Positions 4,904 to 23,861 of a stretch of DNA of 38,121 nucleotides are shown piece by piece. The stretch lies in the NCBI GenBank assembly GCA_017882465.1, contig JADGPN010000008.1:1-38121 (forward strand). Reading direction: 5' to 3'. Under the pieces are notes generated by a model. It was not told where the DNA came from, ran no database searches, and saw nothing but the letters and a program-made list of their open reading frames with translations. The stretch is from Solirubrobacteraceae bacterium (GTDB lineage Bacteria > Actinomycetota > Thermoleophilia > Solirubrobacterales > Solirubrobacteraceae). Position 1 is the stretch's first letter, and every line of letters begins with the position of its first letter. Both the position numbers and the translations under genes were made by a program.

Positions 4904-5419
4904 ATGCTAACCCCGCCCCCGACACCGCTTGCCACGCCCCCAGGGGTTCTGGATGAGCGGGTGTCCAGCGCCGGGCTGCTGCTGGCGATGCTCGGCCGCC
5001 AGGCGATGCGCCAGCTGCGTGCCGTGCACATCGAGCACGGCCTCTCCCCGCGACAGTTCCAGCTCCTGGGACTTCTTCACGACCGGGGCGCGATGACCCA
5101 GCGCGAGCTCGGGTCGGTGATGGACGTGGACCCCAGCATTCTCGTCACCCTGCTCAACCCCCTGGAGACCCGTGGCTACGTCTCCCGGCAGCGTGACCCC
5201 AGCGACCGCCGGCGTCACATCGTCAATCTCAGCTCTGACGGCGCCGAGCACCTGACCCAGGCGGCCCGCGCGCAATCCGAGGCCGAGGACGCGTTCTTCG
5301 CCGGCCTGGACGGCGACCAGCGTGATCAGCTGCGGACGCTCCTCCTCATCCTCCGTAACACCCTCGACGGACCGGTGACCGAGGACTGCGCCGGGACGCC
5401 GGGCCCACCGGGCGAGTGA
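4904..5419 (+). CDS. MarR family transcriptional regulator
   Basis: The 171-residue protein has the MarR winged helix-turn-helix. LSPRQFQLLGLLHDRG leads into the helix-turn-helix (MTQRELGSVMDVDPSILVTL) and a wing with the typical DPSDRRRH turn. The start at 4904 gives a normal length; longer readings extend back through the YceI-like gene and are not credible. The only cysteine lies near the C-terminus (about residue 163), so it is not an OhrR-type regulator with an N-terminal redox cysteine. It is divergent from the YceI/FMN reductase pair and probably controls it in response to a phenolic or quinone ligand. No strong ribosome site precedes the ATG. The last codons lie in a 26-bp tandem duplication (5401-5452). 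Confidence 0.9.
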   Translation: MLTPPPTPLATPPGVLDERVSSAGLLLAMLGRQAMRQLRAVHIEHGLSPRQFQLLGLLHDRGAMTQRELGSVMDVDPSILVTLLNPLETRGYVSRQRDPSDRRRHIVNLSSDGAEHLTQAARAQSEAEDAFFAGLDGDQRDQLRTLLLILRNTLDGPVTEDCAGTPGPPGE

Positions 5420-5452
5420 GTCAGTCGGGCCCACGGGGCGAGTGAGTCAGTG
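5401..5452. repeat. Tandem duplication of 26 bp across the MarR stop codon
   Basis: Two adjacent 26-bp units (5401-5426 and 5427-5452) agree at 24 of 26 positions. The first contains the last codons and the TGA stop of the MarR gene. The second lies just after it and repeats the stop. It looks like a replication-slippage duplication. The remaining 180 bp up to the LysR gene show no gene. Confidence 0.85.
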
Positions 5453-5613
5453 GGGACGGCAGGCGTCACGCGCGGAGCGTACGGGTCGCTAACTGAGAGC
5501 GCCCCGGACCGGCGGTATATGAGGCCGGACTCGGGACGCGCTCGAGGGAGGAGAGGTACTGCTCGATCATCCTGTCCGTTCTTGCTTTAGAAGTCCAAGA
5601 CGTGTAGTCGCTT

Positions 5614-5640
5614 AGATCCATAGGCTTAGCTTATGGATCT
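5614..5640. promoter_or_regulatory. 27-bp palindrome over the LysR start codon, candidate autoregulatory site
   Basis: AGATCCATA (5614-5622) and TATGGATCT (5632-5640) are perfect 9-bp inverted arms. The 9-bp centre is also nearly symmetrical, so 12 of 13 base pairs of the whole dyad match. The ATG of the LysR gene (5633-5635) lies in the right arm. There is no Shine-Dalgarno sequence before it, which suggests a leaderless or very short-leader transcript. LysR proteins bind T-N11-A type dyads, and binding here would block their own expression. The role is inferred from position and symmetry. Confidence 0.6.
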
Positions 5641-6529
5641 TCGTCAGCTGCGCTACCTCGTCGCGCTCGCCGAGGAGCGGCACTTCACCCGGGCCGCCGA
5701 GCGCGAGCACATCGCCCAGCCTGCCCTGTCGCAGCAGATCCGCCGGCTGGAGCAGGAGCTCGGGATCGCGCTGGTGGAGCGCACCACGCGGCGCGTGACG
5801 ATCACCGACGCGGGAGAGCTGCTGGTGGCGCGGGCGCGCCGGGTGCTGGCCGAGGTCGATGGGGCCCTGGCCGAGCTCGATGCTCTGCGCGGCGTGCAGA
5901 CGGGGCGCGTGACGATCGGTGCCATGCACACGATGGGCCCGATCGACGTGTCGCTGGCGCTCGCCCGCTTTCACGACCGTCACCCCGACGTCGAGCTCAC
6001 CGTCCGCGAGCAATCCAGCGAGGAGCTGGCCGAGATGCTCCGGGTCGACGAGCTGGACCTCGCGTTCCTCTCGGTCACCGAGCGCATCGAGAGCCACGGG
6101 CTGGGACTTCGCCAGCTGGTCTCCGAGGAGCTGGTCGCGGTCCTCCCCCGAGCCCACCGTCTCGCCGAGCACCGCCAGGTGCGCATGGCGGAGCTGGCCG
6201 ACGACGAGTTCATCAGCTACCGGCAGGGCGCGAGGCTGCGCGAGCTGCTCGTCGGCGCCGGCCGCCACGCCGGCTACGAACCCCAGGTGAAGCTCGAATC
6301 GAACGAGAGCCAGCGCATCCGTCGGCTCGTGGCCCGCGGGCTTGGCGTCGCCATCCTGCCCCGCTCGGACGCCGACGCGCCGGGCGCCGACGTCGCGGTC
6401 GTGACCCTGATCGACCCCTCGCTGAGCCGCGACATCACGCTCGCCTGGCGTGAGGGGCGGCGCCAAACCCCCGCGGGCGCCGAGTTCCTCGAGCTCGCGC
6501 TGGCCACGTTCGCCGAGGGGAGCGGCTAG
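5633..6529 (+). CDS. LysR family transcriptional regulator
   Basis: The 298-residue protein is full length for the family. The N-terminal winged helix-turn-helix (about 1-60: MDLRQLRYLVALAEERHFTR, then AQPALSQQIRRLE) is followed by a linker helix and a periplasmic-binding-protein-like effector domain (about 90-290). The effector domain has the usual GRVTIGAMHTMG opening and a GLGVAILPRS segment near 245-255. LysR regulators activate or repress in response to a small ligand and usually control a neighbouring gene. Here no gene is divergent from it. The nearest downstream gene is the FAD oxidase on the same strand, 141 bp away, which is the best candidate target besides itself. The start is fixed by the family N-terminus. 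Confidence 0.93.
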   Translation: MDLRQLRYLVALAEERHFTRAAEREHIAQPALSQQIRRLEQELGIALVERTTRRVTITDAGELLVARARRVLAEVDGALAELDALRGVQTGRVTIGAMHTMGPIDVSLALARFHDRHPDVELTVREQSSEELAEMLRVDELDLAFLSVTERIESHGLGLRQLVSEELVAVLPRAHRLAEHRQVRMAELADDEFISYRQGARLRELLVGAGRHAGYEPQVKLESNESQRIRRLVARGLGVAILPRSDADAPGADVAVVTLIDPSLSRDITLAWREGRRQTPAGAEFLELALATFAEGSG

Positions 6530-6670
6530 TGGTCGCCCCCCGATCGGTGGCCGGCTCAGCGGTACCCGGCGGCTGAGGCTCGCGGCCGCCCCAGAGGCTC
6601 GCGCCGCGCGAGAGGCCGCCAGCGCCGACACTCCGCTCCGGGCGCCGAGTCATTACCGTGGCGCTCAGCG

Positions 6671-8287
6671 ATGGCGCTTGCCCGGGCAACCGATCCGTAT
6701 TCGGACCCGTCCTGGTCAGGCTGGGGCGATCCGGCGAACGTGCCCGAGCTGCCCGAGGAAGTCCTGAGCCTGCTCGGTCACGCCCTCGGCGTTAGCCGGC
6801 CCGGCCGCCGCCCGGGGCCGATCTCGGCGGTCACGCTGCCGGCCAGCCGCCTGCCGGCCCCCGTCAGGACGATGCTCGAGACCGCGATCGGCGTCGCCAA
6901 TGTCGTCGACCGCGACGAGGCCCGGGTGCGTCACACCCGCGGCAAGTCGACGCCCGACCTGCTGCGCGTGCGCGCGGGCGACTTCGGTGCCGCGCCCGAC
7001 CTGGTCGTGCTGCCCGGATCCCACCAGCAGGTGCTCGAGGCGCTCCGGATCTGCAGCCAGCACCGAATCGCAGTGGTGCCGTTCGGGGGCGGGACGTCGG
7101 TCGTGGGCGGCCTGCAGCCGCGGTCTGAGCCGTTTGCCGGCGTCATCGCGCTCGATCCGCGACGGCTCAACGGCCTGCTCGGGCTCGACGAGGTGTCGCA
7201 GGTCGCCACGCTGGAGGTCGGCCTGCGCGGGCCCCAGGCCGAGTCGCTCTTGGGCTCGCGCGGCTTCACCACCGGCCACTACCCGCAGTCCTTCGAATAC
7301 GCGACGATCGGAGGCTACGCGGCCACGCGCTCGAGCGGTCAGGCCTCGGCGGGCTACGGCCGCTTCGACGACCTCGTCGTGGGCCTGCGGGTAGCGACGC
7401 CGGTGGGCGAGCTGTCGATTGGCGGCCGAGCGCCCAAGTCGGCCGCCGGCCCCGATCTGCGGCAGCTGATCCTCGGATCCGAGGGGACCCTGGGCGTGAT
7501 CACCGCTGTCAGCCTGCAGATCCGGCCGCTGCCCGAGACGCGGGTGTACGAGGGCTGGCGCTTCGATTCGTTCGCCACCGGCGCGTCCGCACTGCGCACA
7601 CTCGCGCAGGATGGGCGTCGGCCCACCGTGCTGCGGTGCTCCGACGAAGCCGAGACGGCGCTGAACCTGGCGCGCCCGGCGGAGATCGGTGCCGAGGGAG
7701 CCGGCGGGGGGTGCCTGGCCATCGTCGGCTGGGAGGGCTCGGCGGAGGACGTCGACATGCGCGGCCGGGGCGCCACCCGGATGCTCGAGGCCCTGGGCCG
7801 CGGCCCGGAGCCCGAAGCGGGCGAGAGCTGGGCGCGGGACCGCTATCGCGGGCCGTATCTCCGGGACGCACTGCTCGACGCCGGAGCACTGGTCGAGACG
7901 CTGGAGACGGTCACCTTCTGGTCCTTGCTTCCGGCCCTCTACGCCGCGGTGTCGGGGGCGCTCCGCGACTCGCTCATCGCGCAGGGCACCCCGCCGGTGA
8001 TCCTATGCCACATCTCGCACGTGTATGCCTCGGGCGCCTCGCGTTACTTCACCGTCGGCTGCGCTCAGCTGAAGGACCCGGTCGAGCAGTGGCGCCGGGC
8101 CAAGGCCGCCGCCTCGGACGCGATCCTCGCGGCCGGCGGCTCGATCACCCACCATCACGGCGTCGGCCGGGACCACCGCGATTGGTACGAGCGCGAGCTC
8201 GGCCCGACCGCCGTCGAGGCCCTGCGGGCGGTCAAGACGGAGCTCGATCCGGCCGGGGTTCTCAATCCCGGGATCCTCATTCCCTGA
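6671..8287 (+). CDS. FAD-binding oxidase, alkyldihydroxyacetonephosphate synthase-like
   Basis: The 538-residue protein belongs to the vanillyl-alcohol oxidase/PCMH FAD superfamily, in the AGPS-like branch. It has an N-terminal segment (about 1-110), the FAD-binding domain (VVPFGGGTSVVGG at about 137-149; GSEGTLGVITAVSLQIRP at about 269-286) and a C-terminal cap. The cap contains SITHHHGVGRDH, matching the HHH active-site motif of alkylglycerone-phosphate synthase. AGPS swaps the acyl chain of acyl-dihydroxyacetone phosphate for a fatty alcohol in ether-lipid synthesis; bacterial relatives may instead oxidise hydroxy acids, so the reaction is not certain. The ATG at 6671 lacks a clear ribosome site. 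The M29 aminopeptidase gene follows closely and may be cotranscribed. Confidence 0.85.
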   Translation: MALARATDPYSDPSWSGWGDPANVPELPEEVLSLLGHALGVSRPGRRPGPISAVTLPASRLPAPVRTMLETAIGVANVVDRDEARVRHTRGKSTPDLLRVRAGDFGAAPDLVVLPGSHQQVLEALRICSQHRIAVVPFGGGTSVVGGLQPRSEPFAGVIALDPRRLNGLLGLDEVSQVATLEVGLRGPQAESLLGSRGFTTGHYPQSFEYATIGGYAATRSSGQASAGYGRFDDLVVGLRVATPVGELSIGGRAPKSAAGPDLRQLILGSEGTLGVITAVSLQIRPLPETRVYEGWRFDSFATGASALRTLAQDGRRPTVLRCSDEAETALNLARPAEIGAEGAGGGCLAIVGWEGSAEDVDMRGRGATRMLEALGRGPEPEAGESWARDRYRGPYLRDALLDAGALVETLETVTFWSLLPALYAAVSGALRDSLIAQGTPPVILCHISHVYASGASRYFTVGCAQLKDPVEQWRRAKAAASDAILAAGGSITHHHGVGRDHRDWYERELGPTAVEALRAVKTELDPAGVLNPGILIP

Positions 8288-16139: not shown

Positions 16140-16493
16140 TCAGGGATCCTGCGGGCCGCGGGCCAATCCGAACGGGCTGCCCTCGGAGTCCCGGCAGATC
16201 GCGAAGGACTCGCCAGGGTGGATCACCGATCCGCCCAATGCCGTGACCTGCTCGAGGGCGGCGCCGAGGTCGGCGACCGCGAAATAGGGAAGCGAGACCG
16301 TGTCACCCGGCCCGCGCCCGCGCTCATGGATCCCCAGCGCCGGCCCCGCGCCGTGGGTCTGCCACCCGCGACCCTCGGCCGGCCCGCGGTCGTCGAGGCC
16401 CACGCCGAGCAGTCCCGACCAGAAGCTGCGTGCCCGCTCGGGATCGTCAGCCGGGAACTCGATCAGGGACAGGTGATGGGGCATCGGGTCCAC
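16140..16493 (-). CDS. VOC family protein (glyoxalase/bleomycin-resistance fold)
   Basis: The 117-residue protein is a single VOC domain made of two beta-alpha-beta-beta-beta modules. It opens with HHLSLIEFPADDPERARSFW. The second module contains YFAVADLGAALEQVTALGG, and it ends with ICRDSEGSPFGLARG, the typical final strand. Possible metal ligands include His in the first strand and Glu in the last (RDSEGSPF). The family covers glyoxalases, extradiol dioxygenases and antibiotic-binding proteins; the present one cannot be assigned further. It converges on the monooxygenase (18-bp gap) and diverges from the PLP decarboxylase with 54 bp between. A second ATG three codons on is possible. Confidence 0.87.
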   Translation of the reverse strand: MDPMPHHLSLIEFPADDPERARSFWSGLLGVGLDDRGPAEGRGWQTHGAGPALGIHERGRGPGDTVSLPYFAVADLGAALEQVTALGGSVIHPGESFAICRDSEGSPFGLARGPQDP

Positions 16494-16547
16494 GATAACG
16501 CGCCCGGGGCCCGCGGTCGGCTTGCGCCGGGATCTATTGTCACGTCA

Positions 16548-17879
16548 ATGGAAACCGACGACGTGGTCGATCGCGCCCAGCAGCTCGCCCGCGAGTACAT
16601 CTCGGGACTCGCCCGGCGGCCGGTCGGCGGCGCCGACGCACCGGGACTGCGCCGGCCGCTGACCGATGAGGGTCTCGACCCGATCGAGGTCCTCGAAGAC
16701 CTGGCGGCCGACGCCGACCCGGGCCTGGTCGCATCGGCCGGCCCGCGGTATTTCGGGTTCGTGGTCGGAGGCTCGCTCCCGGTGGCGACCGGAGCAGACT
16801 GGCTGGTCTCCGCCTGGGACCAGATGTCGGGGATGTACAGCTCATCTCCCGCCGTGGCGATCGCCGAGGAGGTGACCGCGGCCTGGATGCTCGAACTGCT
16901 CGGCCTGCCCGCGCTCGCCAGCTCGGGCTTCACCACCGGTGCCCAGATGGCGAACTTCACCTGCCTGGCCGCGGCGCGCGGCGCGCTGCTGGGCGCGTTG
17001 GGATGGGATGTCGAGGATCGCGGGCTGTTCGGCGCGCCCGAGATCGACGTGCTGGTGGGCGACGAGGTCCACGTGACGGTGCTGGTCGCGCTGCGCCTCC
17101 TCGGCCTGGGTGAGGCGCGAGTCACCCGCGTCCCGGTCGACGCCAACGGAGCGATGGATCCGGGTGCCCTACGCGAGGCGCTCCCCCCCGGCGGGCGCCC
17201 GTTGCTCGTGTGCGCGCAGGCGGGCAACGTCAACACGGGTGCGTGTGACCCGCTGGAGCCGATCGCCGAGATCGTGGCCGAGCGCGGGGGCTGGCTCCAC
17301 CTCGATGGCGCCTTCGGCCTGTGGGCCGCAGCCTCGCCCCGATTCGCCCACCTCGTGGCCGGTCGCGAGCGGGCCAACTCGTGGGCGCTCGATGCCCACA
17401 AGTGGCTCAACGTGCCCTACGACTGCGCGCTGGCGGTCGTCGGTGACCCCGAGGCCCACCGGCGAGCGATGACGCTGAGCGCCGCGTACCTGCAGGGCAG
17501 TGGGACGCGCGAGCCGGCGCAGTTCGTCCCCGAGGCCTCCCGGCGCGCTCGGGCTATCCCCGCGTACGCCGCGATCAGGTCGCTGGGCCGGCGCGGGGTT
17601 GCGGATCTGGTCGAGCGCTGCTGCGACCACGCCGCGATGATGAGCGCGCTGCTGAGCGAGGGCGGTCTGGAGCTGCTGGGCGACCTCGTGCTGAATCAGG
17701 TGCTCGTCGCCGCGGATCCCGGGCACGTCGCGCGCGTGCAGGCCGAGGGAACGTGCTGGCTCGGAGGCACGGTGTGGAGGGGCCGCGATGCGCTGCGCGT
17801 GTCGTTTTCGAACTGGTCCACCACCGAGGCGGACGTGCGGCGCTCGGCCCGCGCGATCCTCGAAGCGGCTCCCGGCTAG
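16548..17879 (+). CDS. PLP-dependent amino acid decarboxylase (group II, aspartate/tyrosine type)
   Basis: The 443-residue protein has the group II decarboxylase layout. A helical N-terminus leads to PRYFGFVVGGSLPVATGADW (about 66-85), then SGFTTGAQMANFTCLAAARG (the cofactor phosphate segment), HLDGAFGLWA (the aspartate that pairs with the pyridine ring) and DAHKWLNVPYDC, with Lys285 as the Schiff-base lysine. Members decarboxylate amino acids such as glutamate, tyrosine, tryptophan or DOPA; some act as aldehyde synthases. The substrate is not resolved. The start at 16548 fits family length; the frame is open further upstream but there runs through the VOC gene on the other strand. Its TAG stop overlaps the stop of the minus-strand gene at 17876. 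Confidence 0.88.
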   Translation: METDDVVDRAQQLAREYISGLARRPVGGADAPGLRRPLTDEGLDPIEVLEDLAADADPGLVASAGPRYFGFVVGGSLPVATGADWLVSAWDQMSGMYSSSPAVAIAEEVTAAWMLELLGLPALASSGFTTGAQMANFTCLAAARGALLGALGWDVEDRGLFGAPEIDVLVGDEVHVTVLVALRLLGLGEARVTRVPVDANGAMDPGALREALPPGGRPLLVCAQAGNVNTGACDPLEPIAEIVAERGGWLHLDGAFGLWAAASPRFAHLVAGRERANSWALDAHKWLNVPYDCALAVVGDPEAHRRAMTLSAAYLQGSGTREPAQFVPEASRRARAIPAYAAIRSLGRRGVADLVERCCDHAAMMSALLSEGGLELLGDLVLNQVLVAADPGHVARVQAEGTCWLGGTVWRGRDALRVSFSNWSTTEADVRRSARAILEAAPG

Positions 17880-18394
17880 GCGATTGCTGCGCTGGGCCCG
17901 TCGGGTCCAGGGGTGGGAATCGCGGTCTCACCGGAGGCCGCGGGCCGCGAGCCGGTGACCGGGATCCGGGCCACGGCGGGCGGGCGCGCAGGCGGGCGGG
18001 CGGGAGCCTCGAGGCGCTCGAGACCCTCGAGGCCCGAGAGCCTGAGCTCGAGCACCTGCAGGCGATCGCGCAGGAAGCCGCGCTCGTCCGCATGCTCGGG
18101 CGTGTCGGCAAGCCCGTCGATGCGCTCGAGGTCGCTGGCGATCAGTGCCCGGACGCCGTCGGCCAGACGCTGCCGGGCGGCTTCGATCCGCACGGCGTCA
18201 CCGGCCTCGACGGCCTCGCCCAGCTTCACGTCGGCGAGCAGCAGAGAATGCGGGAAACGGGGCGGCGGCCCCGCGCCCAGCACCTCGCCGTCGTTGGCGA
18301 GCCTGGGCAGGCTGGGTCCAAACGGTGACGCCTGCCTGCGGCTTGAGCGGAATGAGGACCCCACGGGATGTCTATCGGCGCGAGGCGCCCACAT
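17876..18394 (-). CDS. Hypothetical helical protein
   Basis: I do not recognise this protein. The core (SLLLADVKLGEAVEAGDA, then DGVRALIASDLERIDGLAD and FLRDRLQVLELRLSGLEGL) is strongly helical and Leu/Glu/Arg-rich, with a probable coiled coil near the end. The tail is Pro/Ala-rich and disordered. Codon third positions in the core are almost all G or C on this strand, which supports real coding. The first 40 residues look less coding, so the start is uncertain: ATG at 18394, ATG at 18436 or an internal GTG are all possible. Its stop overlaps the stop of the decarboxylase, tail to tail. Divergent position relative to the ATP-grasp cluster hints at, but does not prove, a shared control region. 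Confidence 0.5.
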   Translation of the reverse strand: MWAPRADRHPVGSSFRSSRRQASPFGPSLPRLANDGEVLGAGPPPRFPHSLLLADVKLGEAVEAGDAVRIEAARQRLADGVRALIASDLERIDGLADTPEHADERGFLRDRLQVLELRLSGLEGLERLEAPARPPARPPAVARIPVTGSRPAASGETAIPTPGPDGPSAAIA

Positions 18395-18436
18395 GTTTAG
18401 GTCCCGGATACGTGCTGCCGATGATCTGACCAGCAC

Positions 18437-18665
18437 GGGCGCGAATCGGCACCCGCCCGGCGACTCGAGTCTCGTCCAAGTTCCCTGGCCCTCCCTGATG
18501 CAGCTTTCCTGGCTTTCCCTGATCCAGCCGTTGACATGGCGCGGCGGGATTCATGAAACAAAGCGCGGATGCTAGCGGCACGATCACAACAAATGCACAC
18601 GTGTTCGGCCGCCCGGCGCTCGCGCCGTCTCGGCGTGACGCCATACTTCACGACGTGACGGACCG
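18437..18665. promoter_or_regulatory. Repeat-rich control region upstream of the ATP-grasp cluster
   Basis: No gene is seen here. The region contains an imperfect 24-bp tandem repeat (18484-18507 and 18508-18531, 19 of 24 identical) that runs directly into a consensus -35 hexamer TTGACA (18531-18536). A clear -10 is not evident. Further on are ACACGTGT (18597-18604), GGCGTGACGCC (18632-18642) and TCACGACGTGA (18648-18658). CGTGACG occurs twice 20 bp apart (18634-18640 and 18654-18660), two helical turns, just before the ATG of the ATP-grasp gene. These look like binding sites of a dimeric regulator, but none is identified. Confidence 0.45.
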
Positions 18666-21230
18666 ATGACCACGACCGTCCCGACGCCGTCGTACCGGCC
18701 ACTGGAGGGCTCCTACGACGAGATGCTCGACGAGGCTGGCCGGCCTCGAGAGCATTGGGCCCACCTGAGCGGTGCCCTGACCGAGCTGGGGCTCGAGGAG
18801 CTGATCCGCCGCCGTCAGGAGGCGGCGCGGCTGATCGATCAGGACGGCGTCGTCTACAACGCCTATGAGGGCTCTTCGCGGCCCGGCCGGCGCTGGCTGC
18901 TCGATCCCGTGCCGACGGTCGTCTCCAGCCGCGATTGGGAGGCCCTCGAGACCGGTTTGATCGAGCGCGCGGAACTGCTCAACCTGGTGCTGGAGGATCT
19001 CTACGGGGAGCGCGAGCTGCTGCGCCGAGGGCTGCTGCCGCCGGAGATCGTGCTCGGCCATCCGGGGCTTCTGCGCCAGTGCGATCAGATCCGGCTGCCG
19101 GGCCCACAGCAGCTGTTCAGCTACGCGGCCGACATCGGCCGCGACCCGGACGGGCAGCCGGTCGTGCTCTCCGATCGCGCCCAGGCGCCGTCGGGGTTCG
19201 GCTACGCGCTGGAGGCCAGGGCGGTGATCAGCCGTGTGTTCCCGACCCTGTATCGCGATGCCCAGGTGCACCGGCTGGCCCCGTTCTTCCGCTCGCTGCG
19301 CGTGGCCCTGCAGAGAGTGGCGCCGGCCGGGATCGAGGACCCGCGGGTCGTCGTCCTCACTCCCGGGCCATGGAACGAGACCGCCTTCGAGCACGCGTTC
19401 CTGGCCTCCACGCTGGGCTACCCGCTGGTTGAGGGCGCGGATCTGACCGTGCGCGGAGGGGCGGTGTGGATGCGGTCCCTCGGCCGGCTCGAGCCGGTCC
19501 ATGTCGTCCTCCGGCGCGTCGACGCGTCGTTCTGCGACCCGCTCGAGCTGAGGCCCTACTCCCAGCTCGGCGTTCCGGGACTCGTCGAGGCGACTCGCCG
19601 GGGCTCGGTCTCGGTCGTGAACACGCTGGGGGCCAGCGTGCTCGAGAACCCGGCGCTGATGGCGTTCCTGCCGCGGTTGTGCAAGCACCTGCTCGGGGGG
19701 CCGCTGCGGCTGCCCAGCGTCCCAACCTGGTGGTGTGGCGAGGTGCAGGCGCGGCGGCAGGTGCTGGCCAATCTCGCCGGCCTGGTGCTGCGCCCGGTGT
19801 CACGTGAGGCCGCTGCCACGGCGGTATTCGGCGCCGAGCTGAGCCAGAGGGAGCTCGACGATCTGCGGCGGCGCATCGAGTCGAGCCCTTCGGCCTGGGT
19901 CGGCCAGGCGCCGATCTCGCTCGCCTGCGCGCCGACGCTCACCGACGCGGGGCTGGAGCCCCGCCGGAGCGTGCTGCGCGCGTTCGCCGTGCCCCGGGGC
20001 GACTCCTACGCTGTGATGCCCGGAGGTCTCACGAGGGTGGCGGACGGCGGCAACAAGCGCATCTCGAGCCAGTCCGGCGCGATCAGCAAGGACACCTGGG
20101 TGCTCGCCTCCGAGCCTGAGCGCCTGACCGGATTCTGGCTCGAGTCGGGGCCGGCAGTGGAGGGCATCGACCCGATGACGTCGATCCCGTCGCGGGCCGC
20201 CGAGAACATGTGGTGGCTCGGCCGCTACGCCGAGCGTGCGGAGGCGATCACGCGCCTGGTGCGGGTGGTCTACGAGCGGCGCAGCGATTTCCAGGGCAGC
20301 GACAACGCCCCCGGGATCGAGGCGCTGAGAGCGCTGCTGGTGGCGCTGACCCGCACCACCGCCGCGTATCCGGGCTTCGTCGGCCAGGACGCCGAGGAGC
20401 GCCTGAGCTCACCCGGTCGCGAGCTGCTCGATCTCGTCGTCGACGACCAGCGCTCCGGCGGGCTGGCCCATTGCGTGCGGGCGCTGCTCGGGTGCGCCTA
20501 CGCTGTGCGCGACCAGCTCTCGAGCGACACATGGCTCGTCGTCGGTTCCCTGGACCGCGAGATCCTGGAGCTCCGCGGACCCGTGCACGACCCCCAGGCG
20601 GTGGTCCAGGAGCGCCTGCAGCGCGTGATGCAGAGCCTGCTCGCGCTGGGCGGCCTCGGCAGCGAGAGCATGGTCCGTGACCTCGGCTGGCGGTTCATGG
20701 ACGCCGGTCGCCGGATCGAACGCGCTCTACAACTGCTCGCGCTGCTGCGCGCAACGGTGACCGAGGCAGGCGGCACGGCCACCGACAGCCTGCTGTTCGA
20801 ATCGGTGCTCAAGGCGACCGAGAGCATAATCACCTACCGTCGCCGCTACCGCTCGCATGCGCAGCTCGAGACGATGCTCGATCTGCTGCTGCTCGATGAG
20901 GGCAACCCGCGGTCGCTGGCCTACGGGCTCGCCCGGCTCAGCGCTGACCTCGACTCGATCCCGGCCCATTCCGAGCGCCGGATGCGCGAGGAGCAGCAGC
21001 TGCTGCTGCGTGCCACCACGGCCCTGCGCCTGGCCGACACGGGCGCACTCGTGTCCCACGACGCCCGCGGCGCTCGGCCGGGGCTCGAGGCCTTCTTCGA
21101 CGAGCTGCACGAGCAGCTGAGCCGGACGGCGGACGCCGTCGACAGGACTCATTTCGCTCACCTCTTGCCGCAGTGGTCGCTGGTCGGAGCAGCCGGCTCC
21201 GGGTCCTCGCACGGAGGCATCGCGCGGTGA
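18666..21230 (+). CDS. Circularly permuted ATP-grasp / alpha-E fusion protein
   Basis: The 854-residue protein joins two domains that are separate genes in many bacteria. The N-terminal part (about 10-490) is a circularly permuted type-2 ATP-grasp (DUF404/DUF407). It contains GSYDEMLDEAG, DLYGERELLRRGLLPPE, YSQLGVPGLVEA and SVVNTLGASVLENPALMAFL, the last being the family's nucleotide/metal segment. The C-terminal part (about 505-835) is an alpha-E (DUF403) helical domain starting SRAAENMWWLGRYAERAEA. ATP-grasp enzymes join a carboxylate to an amine; this branch is predicted from gene context to make peptide or amide conjugates, with alpha-E as a partner domain. The substrate is unknown. The transglutaminase-like gene follows after 13 bp, so an operon is likely. 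Confidence 0.92.
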   Translation: MTTTVPTPSYRPLEGSYDEMLDEAGRPREHWAHLSGALTELGLEELIRRRQEAARLIDQDGVVYNAYEGSSRPGRRWLLDPVPTVVSSRDWEALETGLIERAELLNLVLEDLYGERELLRRGLLPPEIVLGHPGLLRQCDQIRLPGPQQLFSYAADIGRDPDGQPVVLSDRAQAPSGFGYALEARAVISRVFPTLYRDAQVHRLAPFFRSLRVALQRVAPAGIEDPRVVVLTPGPWNETAFEHAFLASTLGYPLVEGADLTVRGGAVWMRSLGRLEPVHVVLRRVDASFCDPLELRPYSQLGVPGLVEATRRGSVSVVNTLGASVLENPALMAFLPRLCKHLLGGPLRLPSVPTWWCGEVQARRQVLANLAGLVLRPVSREAAATAVFGAELSQRELDDLRRRIESSPSAWVGQAPISLACAPTLTDAGLEPRRSVLRAFAVPRGDSYAVMPGGLTRVADGGNKRISSQSGAISKDTWVLASEPERLTGFWLESGPAVEGIDPMTSIPSRAAENMWWLGRYAERAEAITRLVRVVYERRSDFQGSDNAPGIEALRALLVALTRTTAAYPGFVGQDAEERLSSPGRELLDLVVDDQRSGGLAHCVRALLGCAYAVRDQLSSDTWLVVGSLDREILELRGPVHDPQAVVQERLQRVMQSLLALGGLGSESMVRDLGWRFMDAGRRIERALQLLALLRATVTEAGGTATDSLLFESVLKATESIITYRRRYRSHAQLETMLDLLLLDEGNPRSLAYGLARLSADLDSIPAHSERRMREEQQLLLRATTALRLADTGALVSHDARGARPGLEAFFDELHEQLSRTADAVDRTHFAHLLPQWSLVGAAGSGSSHGGIAR

Positions 21231-21243
21231 GGCGCGAGACGCG

Positions 21244-22134
21244 ATGAGCACGACCTACCGCGTCACCCACCGCACCGAGTACCGGTACGAGTCCGATGTC
21301 TCCGACAGCTACGCGCAGCTGCATCTGCTGCCCCGCGACGGCGACGGACAGCACTGCCTGACCGCCGAGGTCGCCGTGGAGCCGGCGCCGGGGGACTACC
21401 GGGAGCGCGCCGACTACTTCGGCAACCGCGTCGGCTACCTCGCCATCCACGAGCCGCACCGCAGGCTGAGCGTGACCGCAACCAGCTTGGTCGAGACCGG
21501 AGATCGCGCCGCCCCGGTGACCCTGTTCGGAGGGCGTCCGTGGGAGGACGCGCGTGATGCCGTGCGCGACCCGGCCCTGCCCGCGCGGCTCGACGCGGTG
21601 CAGTTCGCGCTCGACTCGGCCCTCGTCGCCGGCTCGCCCGCCTACGCGGGCTACGCGCTCCGATCCTTCACGCCGCGGCGGAGCCTGCTCGAGGCGGTCA
21701 CCGACCTCTGCTCCCGGATCCACCACGACTTCGACTACCGGCCCGGCTCGACCTCCGTCACCACGCCACTGGAGGAGGTGTTCGCCAATCGCCGGGGCGT
21801 ATGCCAGGACTTCGCCCACTTCGGGATCGCCTGCCTGCGTTCGATCGGGCTGCCGGCCAGGTATGTCAGCGGGTACCTGGAGACCGATCCGCCGCCGGGC
21901 CGGCCGAAGCTGATCGGGGCGGACGGCTCGCACGCGTGGTTCTCGATCCTGGCCGGCGAGGCGGGATGGGTGGACGTCGATCCGACCAACGATCAACTGG
22001 CCGGTGGCCGGTACGTCGTGACGGCCTACGGCCGCGACTACGGGGACGTGGCACCGCTGAGCGGAGTGATCTACACCGAGGGCAGGACGGAGAGCCTGCA
22101 GGTGAGGGTCGACGTCGTCGCCGTCCCCGGTTAG
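21244..22134 (+). CDS. Transglutaminase-like cysteine protease family protein
   Basis: The 296-residue protein has the N-terminal beta-rich domain of bacterial transglutaminase-like proteins (about 1-100: YRVTHRTEYRYESDVSDSY, LHLLPRD, YFGNRVGYLAIHEPH). A papain-like core follows with the full catalytic triad: Cys187 (RGVCQDFAH), His230 (GSHAWFSI) and Asp246 (VDVDPTND). Bacterial members are usually predicted to be peptidases or amidases rather than crosslinkers. In the ATP-grasp/alpha-E context it is the likely enzyme that removes or transfers the conjugate. There is no signal peptide, so it should act in the cytoplasm. It lies 13 bp after the ATP-grasp gene and 29 bp before the metallopeptidase. 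Confidence 0.93.
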   Translation: MSTTYRVTHRTEYRYESDVSDSYAQLHLLPRDGDGQHCLTAEVAVEPAPGDYRERADYFGNRVGYLAIHEPHRRLSVTATSLVETGDRAAPVTLFGGRPWEDARDAVRDPALPARLDAVQFALDSALVAGSPAYAGYALRSFTPRRSLLEAVTDLCSRIHHDFDYRPGSTSVTTPLEEVFANRRGVCQDFAHFGIACLRSIGLPARYVSGYLETDPPPGRPKLIGADGSHAWFSILAGEAGWVDVDPTNDQLAGGRYVVTAYGRDYGDVAPLSGVIYTEGRTESLQVRVDVVAVPG

Positions 22135-22163: not shown

Positions 22164-23183
22164 ATGCGCGCGTTCACCTGCAACAACTGCGGCCAGCTGG
22201 TCTTCTTCGAGAACAGCCTCTGCCTGCGCTGCTCGACCGAGCTCGGGTTCGTCCCATCGCAGCTCGACATCCTCGCGCTCGACCACCACGGCCCGGCTCA
22301 GGTGCGCCGCTGCGCCAACGCGGTCGTGGCGGGCTGCAACTGGATGCTCGAGCCGGGCGAGACGGGGCCTCTGTGCCGCAGTTGCCGCCTGACCCGGAGC
22401 CGCCCCGCCGACGAGGACCCCGACGGACTGGCCGCCTTTGCCAAGGCCGAGGCGGCCAAACGGCGCCTTCTGTTCGGGCTCATGGATCTGGGGCTCCCGG
22501 TGGAGTCCGGCGGGCTGCAGTTCGACCTGCTGCCGAGCCGGACGGCCCCGGTCGTGACCGGCCACGCCGACGGCCTGATCACGATCGATCTGGCCGAGTC
22601 CGACGACGCACGGCGCGAGCAGCGCCGGGCGGAGCTGGGTGAGCCCTACCGCACGATGCTGGGCCACTTCCGGCATGAGGTCGGGCACTACTACTGGCCG
22701 ATCCTGATCGAGCGAACGGGAGAGCTCGAGCGCTGGCGCCGGCTGTTCGGCGACGAACGCGCCGATTATGACCAGGCGCTGCAGCGTCACTACGAGCGGG
22801 GGCCGACGGCCGACTGGAGCGACCGGCACGTGAGCGCCTACGCGACCATGCATCCCTGGGAGGACTGGGCCGAGACGTTCGCGCACTACCTCCACATTCG
22901 CGACACCCTGCAGACGGCGGCGGCCTTCGGGCTGTTCGTGACCGGCCCGCGGGAGACGGGCGACGCCTCGTTGATGGCGGCGCCGGCCGAGGACACGGGC
23001 GAGGGATCGTTTCGGGCCGTGATCGGCGACTGGCTCCCGCTCACCTACGCGCTCAACGCGGTCAACCGCAGCCTGGGTCGCGACGACCTGTACCCCTTTG
23101 CGCTGGCGCCCGCCGTGATCGACAAGCTCTCGTTCGTCCACGACCGGGTGCGAGCCGGCCGGCTCGTCGCGGGCGGAGGATGA
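22164..23183 (+). CDS. Zinc-ribbon putative zinc-binding metallopeptidase
   Basis: The 339-residue protein begins with a zinc ribbon: Cys6 and Cys9 (CNNC), Cys20 and Cys23 (CLRC). A second Cys set follows (RRCANAVVAGC, then CRSC at about 72-75). The catalytic segment FRHEVGHYYW places His171, Glu172 and His175 as an HExxH motif, with a downstream Glu/His-rich stretch (HPWEDWAETFAHYLH) supplying a third ligand. This matches the putative zinc-binding metallopeptidase family. No signal peptide is seen. It is last in the tight ATP-grasp, transglutaminase, peptidase series, which suggests it matures or degrades the product of that pathway. The start at 22164 has only a distant GAGG upstream, so translation may depend on the preceding gene. 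Confidence 0.9.
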   Translation: MRAFTCNNCGQLVFFENSLCLRCSTELGFVPSQLDILALDHHGPAQVRRCANAVVAGCNWMLEPGETGPLCRSCRLTRSRPADEDPDGLAAFAKAEAAKRRLLFGLMDLGLPVESGGLQFDLLPSRTAPVVTGHADGLITIDLAESDDARREQRRAELGEPYRTMLGHFRHEVGHYYWPILIERTGELERWRRLFGDERADYDQALQRHYERGPTADWSDRHVSAYATMHPWEDWAETFAHYLHIRDTLQTAAAFGLFVTGPRETGDASLMAAPAEDTGEGSFRAVIGDWLPLTYALNAVNRSLGRDDLYPFALAPAVIDKLSFVHDRVRAGRLVAGGG

Positions 23184-23306
23184 CGAGCGGTTCCACAGGA
23201 CGGCGTACGCGCGGTCCGCTGATGCGCCTCTATGTATACAAAGCTGGCGAGCGCGGCACTTGTCCACCATCCAAGTAGCTTTTACATCTATCTTTCCAAG
23301 GCTGCC

Positions 23307-23861
23307 ATGAGAAACGAACCGCAAGCTCGGCCCCAGCTGCGCCTCGTCGCAGAGCCGCTCGACCGGCCCCAAGACCGGGCGTGGTTCTGCGGACACTGCG
23401 CGGCGCCGGCACCCGAGCCGACGGCGCCCACGGCCCGGGTGTGCCCCGGGTGCGGTTTCGGCGTCCTGCTCGCGGCACGCGTGGACGTCGTGCCCGGCCG
23501 GTGCGACGCGTACATGGTGATCGACTCCTCGCTGCTCGTTCAGGTGCTCTCGCGCGGCGCCGAGAACCTGCTCGCGGTGCCCGAGGAACTCGCCATCAAT
23601 CGGTCCTTCGCCGAGCTGCTCGCCCCGGCGGATGCCGAAGCCAAGGGCAGCGGCCAGCTGGCCAGCGCGATTGCCGCCGCGGCCGCGGACGACGAGGTCA
23701 GCTTCCACGTGCTGGTACGGCCCTGGAACGTGTTCGGCGTCCGGATGCGCGCGAAGGTTGCGCCGTGCGGGCCGCCCCGCGCCGCTCTGATCGTGCTCGA
23801 GCCGGCGAACGCCCTGCGGGCTGTGCCCGACGCCCGGGGCCCGCAGCGCGACAAGCGCTGA
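23307..23861 (+). CDS. PAS-like domain protein with N-terminal zinc ribbon
   Basis: The 184-residue protein starts with a short basic lead and a zinc ribbon (WFCGHC, then VCPGCGFGVLL; two CxxC pairs). A PAS-like domain follows (about 70-175), with MVIDSSLLVQVLSRGAENLL, SFAELLAPADAEAKG and a final strand AALIVLEPAN. I recognise the pattern as one found in Thermoleophilia-type actinobacteria, but its function is unknown; it may sense a ligand or redox state and bind a partner through the ribbon. The start at 23307 follows CCAAGG with 6-bp spacing. An in-frame ATG at 23232 would add 25 residues of non-family sequence. The upstream stretch 23231-23306 is AT-rich compared with the region and probably holds the promoter. 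Confidence 0.72.
   Translation: MRNEPQARPQLRLVAEPLDRPQDRAWFCGHCAAPAPEPTAPTARVCPGCGFGVLLAARVDVVPGRCDAYMVIDSSLLVQVLSRGAENLLAVPEELAINRSFAELLAPADAEAKGSGQLASAIAAAAADDEVSFHVLVRPWNVFGVRMRAKVAPCGPPRAALIVLEPANALRAVPDARGPQRDKR

What the first reader, a model, noticed from the sequence alone, without database searches (positions are those of the whole stretch)
22164..23183. Zinc-ribbon metallopeptidase in the slot often filled by a proteasome-like peptidase
Related ATP-grasp/alpha-E/transglutaminase clusters in other bacteria often include Anbu, a proteasome-like peptidase. No Anbu is present here; instead an HExxH peptidase with two cysteine sets ends the operon. If it plays the same role, a different catalytic type has replaced the peptidase while keeping the pathway.
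Basis: partly seen in the sequence, partly recalled or inferred. Interest (0 to 1): 0.55.

Follow-up and report, generated by a model that had tools for sequence, protein, structure and literature searches.

The report
Zinc peptidase of a peptide-ligase operon
The gene is an ordinary member of a widespread, unstudied family of zinc-dependent peptidases that, in the genomes sampled, is found almost only in bacteria carrying a certain peptide-ligase gene cluster; it does not look like a stand-in for the proteasome-like peptidase Anbu, because the two accompany different branches of that cluster and can occur in the same genome.

Summary
22164-23183 (+) encodes 339 aa: a double zinc ribbon plus Peptidase_Mx (HExxH), the last gene after an ATP-grasp-alpha-E fusion and a transglutaminase. 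No Anbu was found in the window (Anbu profile) or the genome (PF00227).

The replacement idea is not supported. In an ATP-grasp tree of 95 domains, one branch (SH-aLRT 100) parts two lineages. The fused lineage B (the window's) has Mx near 23 of 32 rows and Anbu near none. The other, lineage A, has Anbu near 11 of 63. The genome also carries a lineage A cluster without Anbu, as do relatives that lack Mx. Twelve of 50 Mx genomes also have Anbu; in two Caballeronia, Anbu sits beside A and Mx beside B.

The link to the pathway is supported. Alpha-E is present in 23 of 23 Mx genomes of Actinomycetota (62 of 296 overall), 33 of 34 of Pseudomonadota (115 of 199 overall) and 50 of 50 named genomes, although the genes are adjacent in only about half of the loci. 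The model (pLDDT 91) resembles gluzincin peptidases; E233 is the likely third zinc ligand.

It is a new member of a known family. That it hydrolyses the ligase product is inference.

The parts
18666..21230 (+). ATP-grasp (CP_ATPgrasp_1/2) fused to Alpha-E, 854 aa: lineage B ligase
   Evidence: Pfam CP_ATPgrasp_2 481 bits, Alpha-E 245 bits; in the fused clade of the ATP-grasp tree, sister to a Solirubrobacteraceae MAG
21244..22134 (+). transglutaminase-like protein, 296 aa (Bact_transglu_N + Transglut_core)
   Evidence: Pfam; apparent Cys-His-Asp residues read by eye from the translation (inference)
22164..23183 (+). Peptidase_Mx zinc metallopeptidase with N-terminal double zinc ribbon, 339 aa
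   Evidence: Pfam, 64-row alignment, AlphaFold2 model pLDDT 90.8, pTM 0.90
22173..22412 (+). double zinc ribbon (aa 4-83), Cys pairs C6/C9, C20/C23, C50/C58, C71/C74
   Evidence: PF10005 77 bits; eight Cys invariant in 64 rows
22674..22688 (+). HExxH zinc-binding motif, H171-H175
22860..22874 (+). E233-D-W-A-E237, proposed third zinc ligand (E233) and second-shell acid (E237)
   Evidence: both invariant in 64 rows, in the helix 231-254; ligand role inferred by the gluzincin pattern (recalled), not measured

Best explanation
The gene encodes a gluzincin-type zinc metallopeptidase of the Peptidase_Mx family with a double zinc ribbon in front, probably cytosolic (judged from the N-terminus; no predictor was run). 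It is an accessory of the alpha-E/circularly permuted ATP-grasp peptide-ligase system, most often of the fused lineage B, and not a substitute for Anbu. Most likely mechanism: the ligase with alpha-E makes a peptide or isopeptide product, on a small molecule or a protein; the transglutaminase-like protein and Mx then process or hydrolyse it, the zinc ribbon helping to hold the substrate or a partner. Shown here: family, motif, fold class, gene order, genome-level co-occurrence with alpha-E, and the separation of the Mx-linked and Anbu-linked lineages. Inferred: that it is active, that E233 is the third ligand, that its substrate is the ligase product, and that it has no Anbu-like role.
For: Family and architecture: both Pfam domains over cut-off, and both found in 64 of 64 aligned sequences. 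Fold: confident model whose best PDB matches are zincins (clan MA, recalled): 4l7a, a putative zinc-binding metallopeptidase, Foldseek E 5.5e-3; and the catalytic domain of anthrax lethal factor, Z 9.6, rmsd 4.0, 178 aligned, with Pro-Pro endopeptidases at Z 7.9 and below. Genome link: alpha-E in 23 of 23 Mx genomes against 62 of 296 overall in Actinomycetota (Fisher p 5e-18); in 33 of 34 against 115 of 199 in Pseudomonadota (p 4e-8); in 50 of 50 named genomes. Lineage: of 133 ATP-grasp/alpha-E pairs, fused with Mx 49, fused with Anbu 0, separate with Anbu 11; tree split; 23 genomes with a fused ligase and 23 with Mx, 18 shared, of 296. The order fused ligase-transglutaminase-Mx recurs on one strand in 28 of 106 loci, in Actinomycetota and one Bacteroidota (Ferruginibacter) MAG. 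Precedent for a peptidase that trims what an ATP-grasp ligase adds: RimB and RimK (PMC12239564, passages read).
Against: Mx is not strictly tied to lineage B. Five Actinomycetota genomes have Mx and, among the clusters fetched, only lineage A ones, and in G300, G306 and G308 the only alpha-E found lies in an A cluster with Anbu beside it. Six of 133 pairs are separate-gene with Mx near; in L080 and L144 no fused cluster is near. Five genomes have a fused ligase without Mx. G431 has Mx and no alpha-E. ATP-grasp/alpha-E linkage is absent in about half of loci. Pairs and genomes are not independent (many mycobacteria), and the Fisher values ignore descent. The tree is a quick one without bootstrap. 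The fold matches are moderate: no Foldseek match at E 0.001 or better, and Z under 8 can be a common arrangement (note). No activity was tested.
Confidence: 0.72

Rival explanations
1. Non-homologous replacement: Mx took over the job of Anbu in the same pathway after Anbu was lost.
For: No Anbu found in the genome with PF00227; Mx occupies the end of the cluster; none of 63 fused pairs has Anbu within 5 kb. At the level of the two old lineages, different peptidases could fill a like role.
Against: Different ligase lineages; coexistence of Anbu and Mx in 12 of 50 genomes; the genome's lineage A cluster and those of relatives lack Anbu whether or not Mx is present; most separate-gene clusters gathered have neither peptidase near (53 of 70 pairs).
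Confidence: 0.12
2. Independent housekeeping or stress peptidase that shares regulation with the ligase cluster (for example nitrogen limitation) but does not act on its product.
For: No ATP-grasp or alpha-E within 10 kb in about half of loci, with varied neighbours. Clusters of this kind respond to nitrogen supply or need NtrC: PP_2685/PP_2688 of P. putida (PMC8050072, passage read) and I35_5080-83 of B. cenocepacia (PMC5491218, passages read); neither passage names an Mx gene.
Against: Nearly every sampled Mx genome has alpha-E, even where the genes are unlinked; linkage is scattered over the Mx tree, 11 changes, at least 5 forced by well-supported branches, as expected of repeated coupling, though gains and losses cannot be told apart.
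Confidence: 0.2
3. Chance neighbour of a mobile or scattered gene.
For: Absent from the other sampled members of the window's family, order and class, so its distribution is patchy.
Against: The same order in 28 of 106 loci; co-occurrence with alpha-E far above the base rate; the window's ligase and Mx have the same nearest row by path, L070 (support of the pair 99 and 81).
Confidence: 0.04

Closest known systems
Peptidase_Mx (Pfam PF15887), NCBI 'putative zinc-binding metallopeptidase'
   Same: Full-length match, HExxH, zinc ribbon in front as in 64 of 64 aligned sequences
   Different: Nothing found beyond ordinary sequence divergence (about 60% identity to the nearest rows)
Anbu operon (ATP-grasp, alpha-E, transglutaminase, Anbu; Iyer 2009 as cited in PMC5666114 and PMC6376114)
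   Same: Same three partner families
   Different: Here the ATP-grasp and alpha-E are fused and belong to another lineage, no Anbu was found, and Mx is present
Gluzincins of the lethal-factor/Pro-Pro endopeptidase type and Peptidase_Mx1 (4l7a)
   Same: Catalytic domain fold by structure comparison; 9 of 64 sequences also match Peptidase_Mx1 weakly. That 4l7a belongs to Mx1 is recalled
   Different: Low sequence identity (10-20% in the aligned parts) and a double zinc ribbon in front; no toxin or secretion feature seen

Membership tests
Peptidase_Mx (PF15887) | Full-length profile match over the curated cut-off | tested here: met
   328 bits against 27, positions 3-235 of 236
Peptidase_Mx (PF15887) | HExxH motif conserved | tested here: met
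   H171 E172 H175 invariant in 64 rows
Gluzincin (clan MA) zincin | Zincin fold | tested here: met
   Z 9.6 over 178 residues to a zincin catalytic domain, 4l7a E 5.5e-3, and the rows listed by VIA-align are zinc metallopeptidases; moderate strength, no Foldseek E of 0.001 or better
Gluzincin (clan MA) zincin | Third zinc ligand is a Glu in the following helix | tested here: inconclusive
   E233 and E237 invariant, in helix 231-254; no coordinates were available to measure distances
Gluzincin (clan MA) zincin | Zinc-dependent peptidase activity | not testable with these tools
   needs an assay
Anbu operon | CP ATP-grasp, alpha-E and transglutaminase together | tested here: met
Anbu operon | Anbu peptidase in or beside the cluster | tested here: not met
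   no Anbu profile hit in the window or in the fetched stretches around the second cluster; no PF00227 hit in the genome
Anbu operon | Four separate genes, ATP-grasp and alpha-E apart (as in PMC6376114) | tested here: not met
   window pair is fused and falls in the fused clade

The most novel reading that the evidence does not exclude
Bacteria run two old, paralogous alpha-E/ATP-grasp peptide-ligase systems side by side, each with its own hydrolase of unrelated fold: the Ntn-hydrolase Anbu for the separate-gene lineage A and the gluzincin Mx for the fused lineage B. Peptidase_Mx would then be the dedicated trimming or deconjugating enzyme of system B, and its near-exclusive occurrence in alpha-E genomes gives a function to a whole uncharacterised family.
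Probability: 0.3. Interest if true: 0.6.

Novelty: new member of a known kind. Interest (0 to 1): 0.36.

Why it matters
The alpha-E/ATP-grasp cluster is common (alpha-E in 62 of 296 Actinomycetota and 115 of 199 Pseudomonadota genomes sampled) and its product is, as far as I know, undetermined. If it comes in two lineages with different peptidases, results on Anbu should not be carried over to clusters like this one, mycobacterial ones included. It also gives an uncharacterised metallopeptidase family a testable partner.

Tried and rejected
Replacement of Anbu by Mx: rejected on lineage, coexistence and the Anbu-free lineage A clusters of relatives. Chance neighbour: rejected on co-occurrence. 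A shared theme in the neighbours of unlinked Mx (carbohydrate reserve or stress genes, suggested by three plasmid records): 20 neighbouring ORFs of 12 loci (11 unlinked, one with only a transglutaminase) gave none; 6 had no Pfam match, TPP enzymes recur in L126 and L146 and histidine kinases in L092 and L100, and only L121 has a transglutaminase-DUF2126 protein there. Solved structure by sequence: four chance-level matches only, E 0.44-0.65. NCBIfam: no match for the four proteins. Possible Anbu in the window's own family (PF00227 hits of G097 and G240): no match to the Anbu query or profile; a weak hit in G075 of the same class was not fetched. PF00227 on Pseudomonadota: 14 of 34 Mx genomes have a second match, which could be Anbu; not examined. 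From memory only: that M. tuberculosis carries this set (Rv2567-Rv2569c); paper searches gave nothing useful. Iyer 2009 is not held, so whether it already names this metallopeptidase could not be checked; the listings of searches of the held library showed no paper that plainly couples Peptidase_Mx with the cluster. Third-ligand distances could not be measured: no coordinates are given out.

Full report
What is there. The 339-aa protein has a double zinc ribbon (aa 4-83) and a Peptidase_Mx domain (aa 90-327, E 4e-98). It follows, on the same strand and with gaps of 13 and 29 bp, an 854-aa ATP-grasp-alpha-E fusion and a 296-aa transglutaminase-like protein. NCBI annotation calls such proteins 'putative zinc-binding metallopeptidase'. 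In 64 aligned sequences the eight ribbon cysteines, H171, E172, H175, Y226, E233, D234, E237 and H241 are invariant, and both Pfam domains are found in 64 of 64.

Fold and active site. AlphaFold2 gave pLDDT 90.8 and pTM 0.90. The best solved matches are zinc metallopeptidases: 4l7a, Foldseek E 5.5e-3, with no match at E 0.001 or better, and by VIA-align the catalytic domain of anthrax lethal factor (Z 9.6, rmsd 4.0, 178 aligned), then Pro-Pro endopeptidases (Z 7.9 and below) and 4l7a (Z 7.6). These are moderate values. HExxH lies in helix 165-181 and E233/E237 in helix 231-254. By the gluzincin pattern ExxA(D/E) (recalled), E233 would be the third ligand and E237 second shell; Y226, seven residues before E233, could be the tyrosine that assists catalysis in that group (spacing recalled). 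No distance was measured.

The own genome. G000 (5.5 Mb, 757 contigs, 95% complete) has one Mx, three alpha-E matches and no PF00227 match. Two of the alpha-E matches are the ends of what looks like one gene cut by contig ends (their translations overlap). It lies in a second cluster with separate ATP-grasp, alpha-E and transglutaminase genes, without Anbu or Mx in the fetched stretches.

Two lineages. In 133 ATP-grasp/alpha-E pairs from the loci gathered (not independent; some loci count more than once; many loci were fetched because of Mx or Anbu), 49 fused pairs have Mx within 8 kb, 14 fused have neither, 11 separate pairs have Anbu within 5 kb, 6 separate have Mx, 53 separate have neither, and no fused pair has Anbu. 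The ATP-grasp tree used 95 of these pairs; 28 loci, mostly near-duplicates from mycobacteria and Caballeronia, and domains under 380 aa were left out. It is a quick IQ-TREE search with SH-aLRT only. One branch (100) parts 32 rows, all fused (23 Mx, 9 neither), from 63 rows: 61 separate and 2 fused (11 Anbu, 5 Mx, 47 neither). The window lies in the first, beside a Solirubrobacteraceae MAG; the genome's second cluster lies in the other, with four relatives of its own family and order. Of the five separate rows with Mx, three (L036, L059, L129) also have a fused cluster near; L080 and L144 have none.

Anbu and Mx together. Of 50 named Mx genomes (chosen by me from the 80 loci), PF00227 gave Anbu-like matches in 12, and all 12 matched, by sequence, an Anbu that lies beside alpha-E in another genome. 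In 8 of them Anbu lies beside a separate-gene ATP-grasp/alpha-E cluster. In Caballeronia udeis (L125, L190) and Caballeronia RYN_561 (L132, L189) the same genome has Anbu beside A and Mx beside B. In Actinomycetota, G169 has both, with Anbu beside A. In the window's own family and order, lineage A clusters (L197, L211, L212; L252 is cut off by the contig end) lack Anbu and these genomes lack Mx. So loss of Anbu and presence of Mx are not coupled.

Co-occurrence with alpha-E. Actinomycetota sample of 296 genomes: Mx over cut-off in 23, alpha-E in 62, and all 23 Mx genomes have it. Four more genomes have only sub-threshold Mx matches and were not counted; one of these (G188) has alpha-E, three do not. 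Pseudomonadota sample of 199: Mx in 34, two of them (G519, G530) only broken pieces; alpha-E in 115; 33 of the 34 have it, both broken ones included; the exception is G431. Named genomes: 50 of 50, 41 of them (counted by eye) with an alpha-E in a frame of 810 aa or more, as a fusion would give. G313 is in both of the last two sets. Fused clusters and Mx: 23 genomes each, 18 shared, of 296 (one weak alpha-E locus, G127, was not fetched). Fisher p values are 5e-18, 4e-8 and 4e-20; they ignore descent and overstate the case.

Linkage. ATP-grasp or alpha-E within 10 kb of Mx: 38 of 80 named loci (3 more with only a transglutaminase-type protein; 39 without, 11 of these within 5 kb of a contig end), 11 of 26 Actinomycetota loci (1 and 14, 4 of these near a contig end), 1 of 6 plasmid loci (1 and 4). 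The 80 are the best of at least 540 relatives, so they lean towards the window's kin. The exact order on one strand is found in 28 of 106. On the Mx tree (88 rows) the linked label needs 11 changes. So coupling is frequent and scattered, but not obligatory.

How it may work. Earlier authors read the Anbu operon as a peptide-synthesis or tagging system with Anbu as its peptidase (PMC5666114 and PMC6376114, passages read); [quoted passage not shown] Related clusters respond to nitrogen supply (PMC8050072, PMC5491218, passages read). In the RimK/RimB pair a peptidase trims what an ATP-grasp ligase adds (PMC12239564, passages read), which is a precedent, not a test. Several fused clusters have a second transglutaminase-type protein about 2-3 kb before the ligase (for example L047, L048, L055, L086, L091); in L070 it carries DUF2126, a putative amidoligase, and in L121 such a protein lies beside Mx. 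The window has only one transglutaminase-type hit. The most economical reading is that Mx hydrolyses or trims the product of system B; this step is inference.

Verdict. The protein is an ordinary member of a known family in a known kind of cluster. The replacement idea is not supported. What deserves attention is the separation of two ligase lineages with different peptidases, and the near-exclusive occurrence of Peptidase_Mx in alpha-E genomes.

Noticed in passing
L005 (G000:C699:9000-16062) 5376-7062 and L006 (G000:C706:1-8000) 3-2004: The genome has a second, separate-gene ATP-grasp/alpha-E/transglutaminase cluster split over two contig ends, without Anbu or Mx in the fetched stretches.
   Followed up: yes
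window 16218-18666: No transglutaminase-DUF2126 amidoligase was seen upstream of the ligase, although the nearest relative L070 has one; a PLP-dependent decarboxylase (PF00282) lies there instead. Whether DUF2126 is elsewhere in the genome was not searched.
   Followed up: partly
window 23232-23861: A 209-aa ORF just after the peptidase shows another CxxC...CxxC zinc-finger-like start and has no Pfam match.
   Followed up: no
G431 (Pseudomonadota sample): The only sampled genome with a strong Mx match and no alpha-E match.
   Followed up: no
L201 (G169:C34:24000-37000) 6098-6763: An Anbu beside an alpha-E cluster in Actinomycetota that the PF00227 search did not list; PF00227 surveys can undercount Anbu.
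   Followed up: partly
L254, L255, L256, L258: Actinomycetota loci of the window's own class with a partial alpha-E match (about 200 aa) and no ATP-grasp or transglutaminase hit nearby.
   Followed up: no
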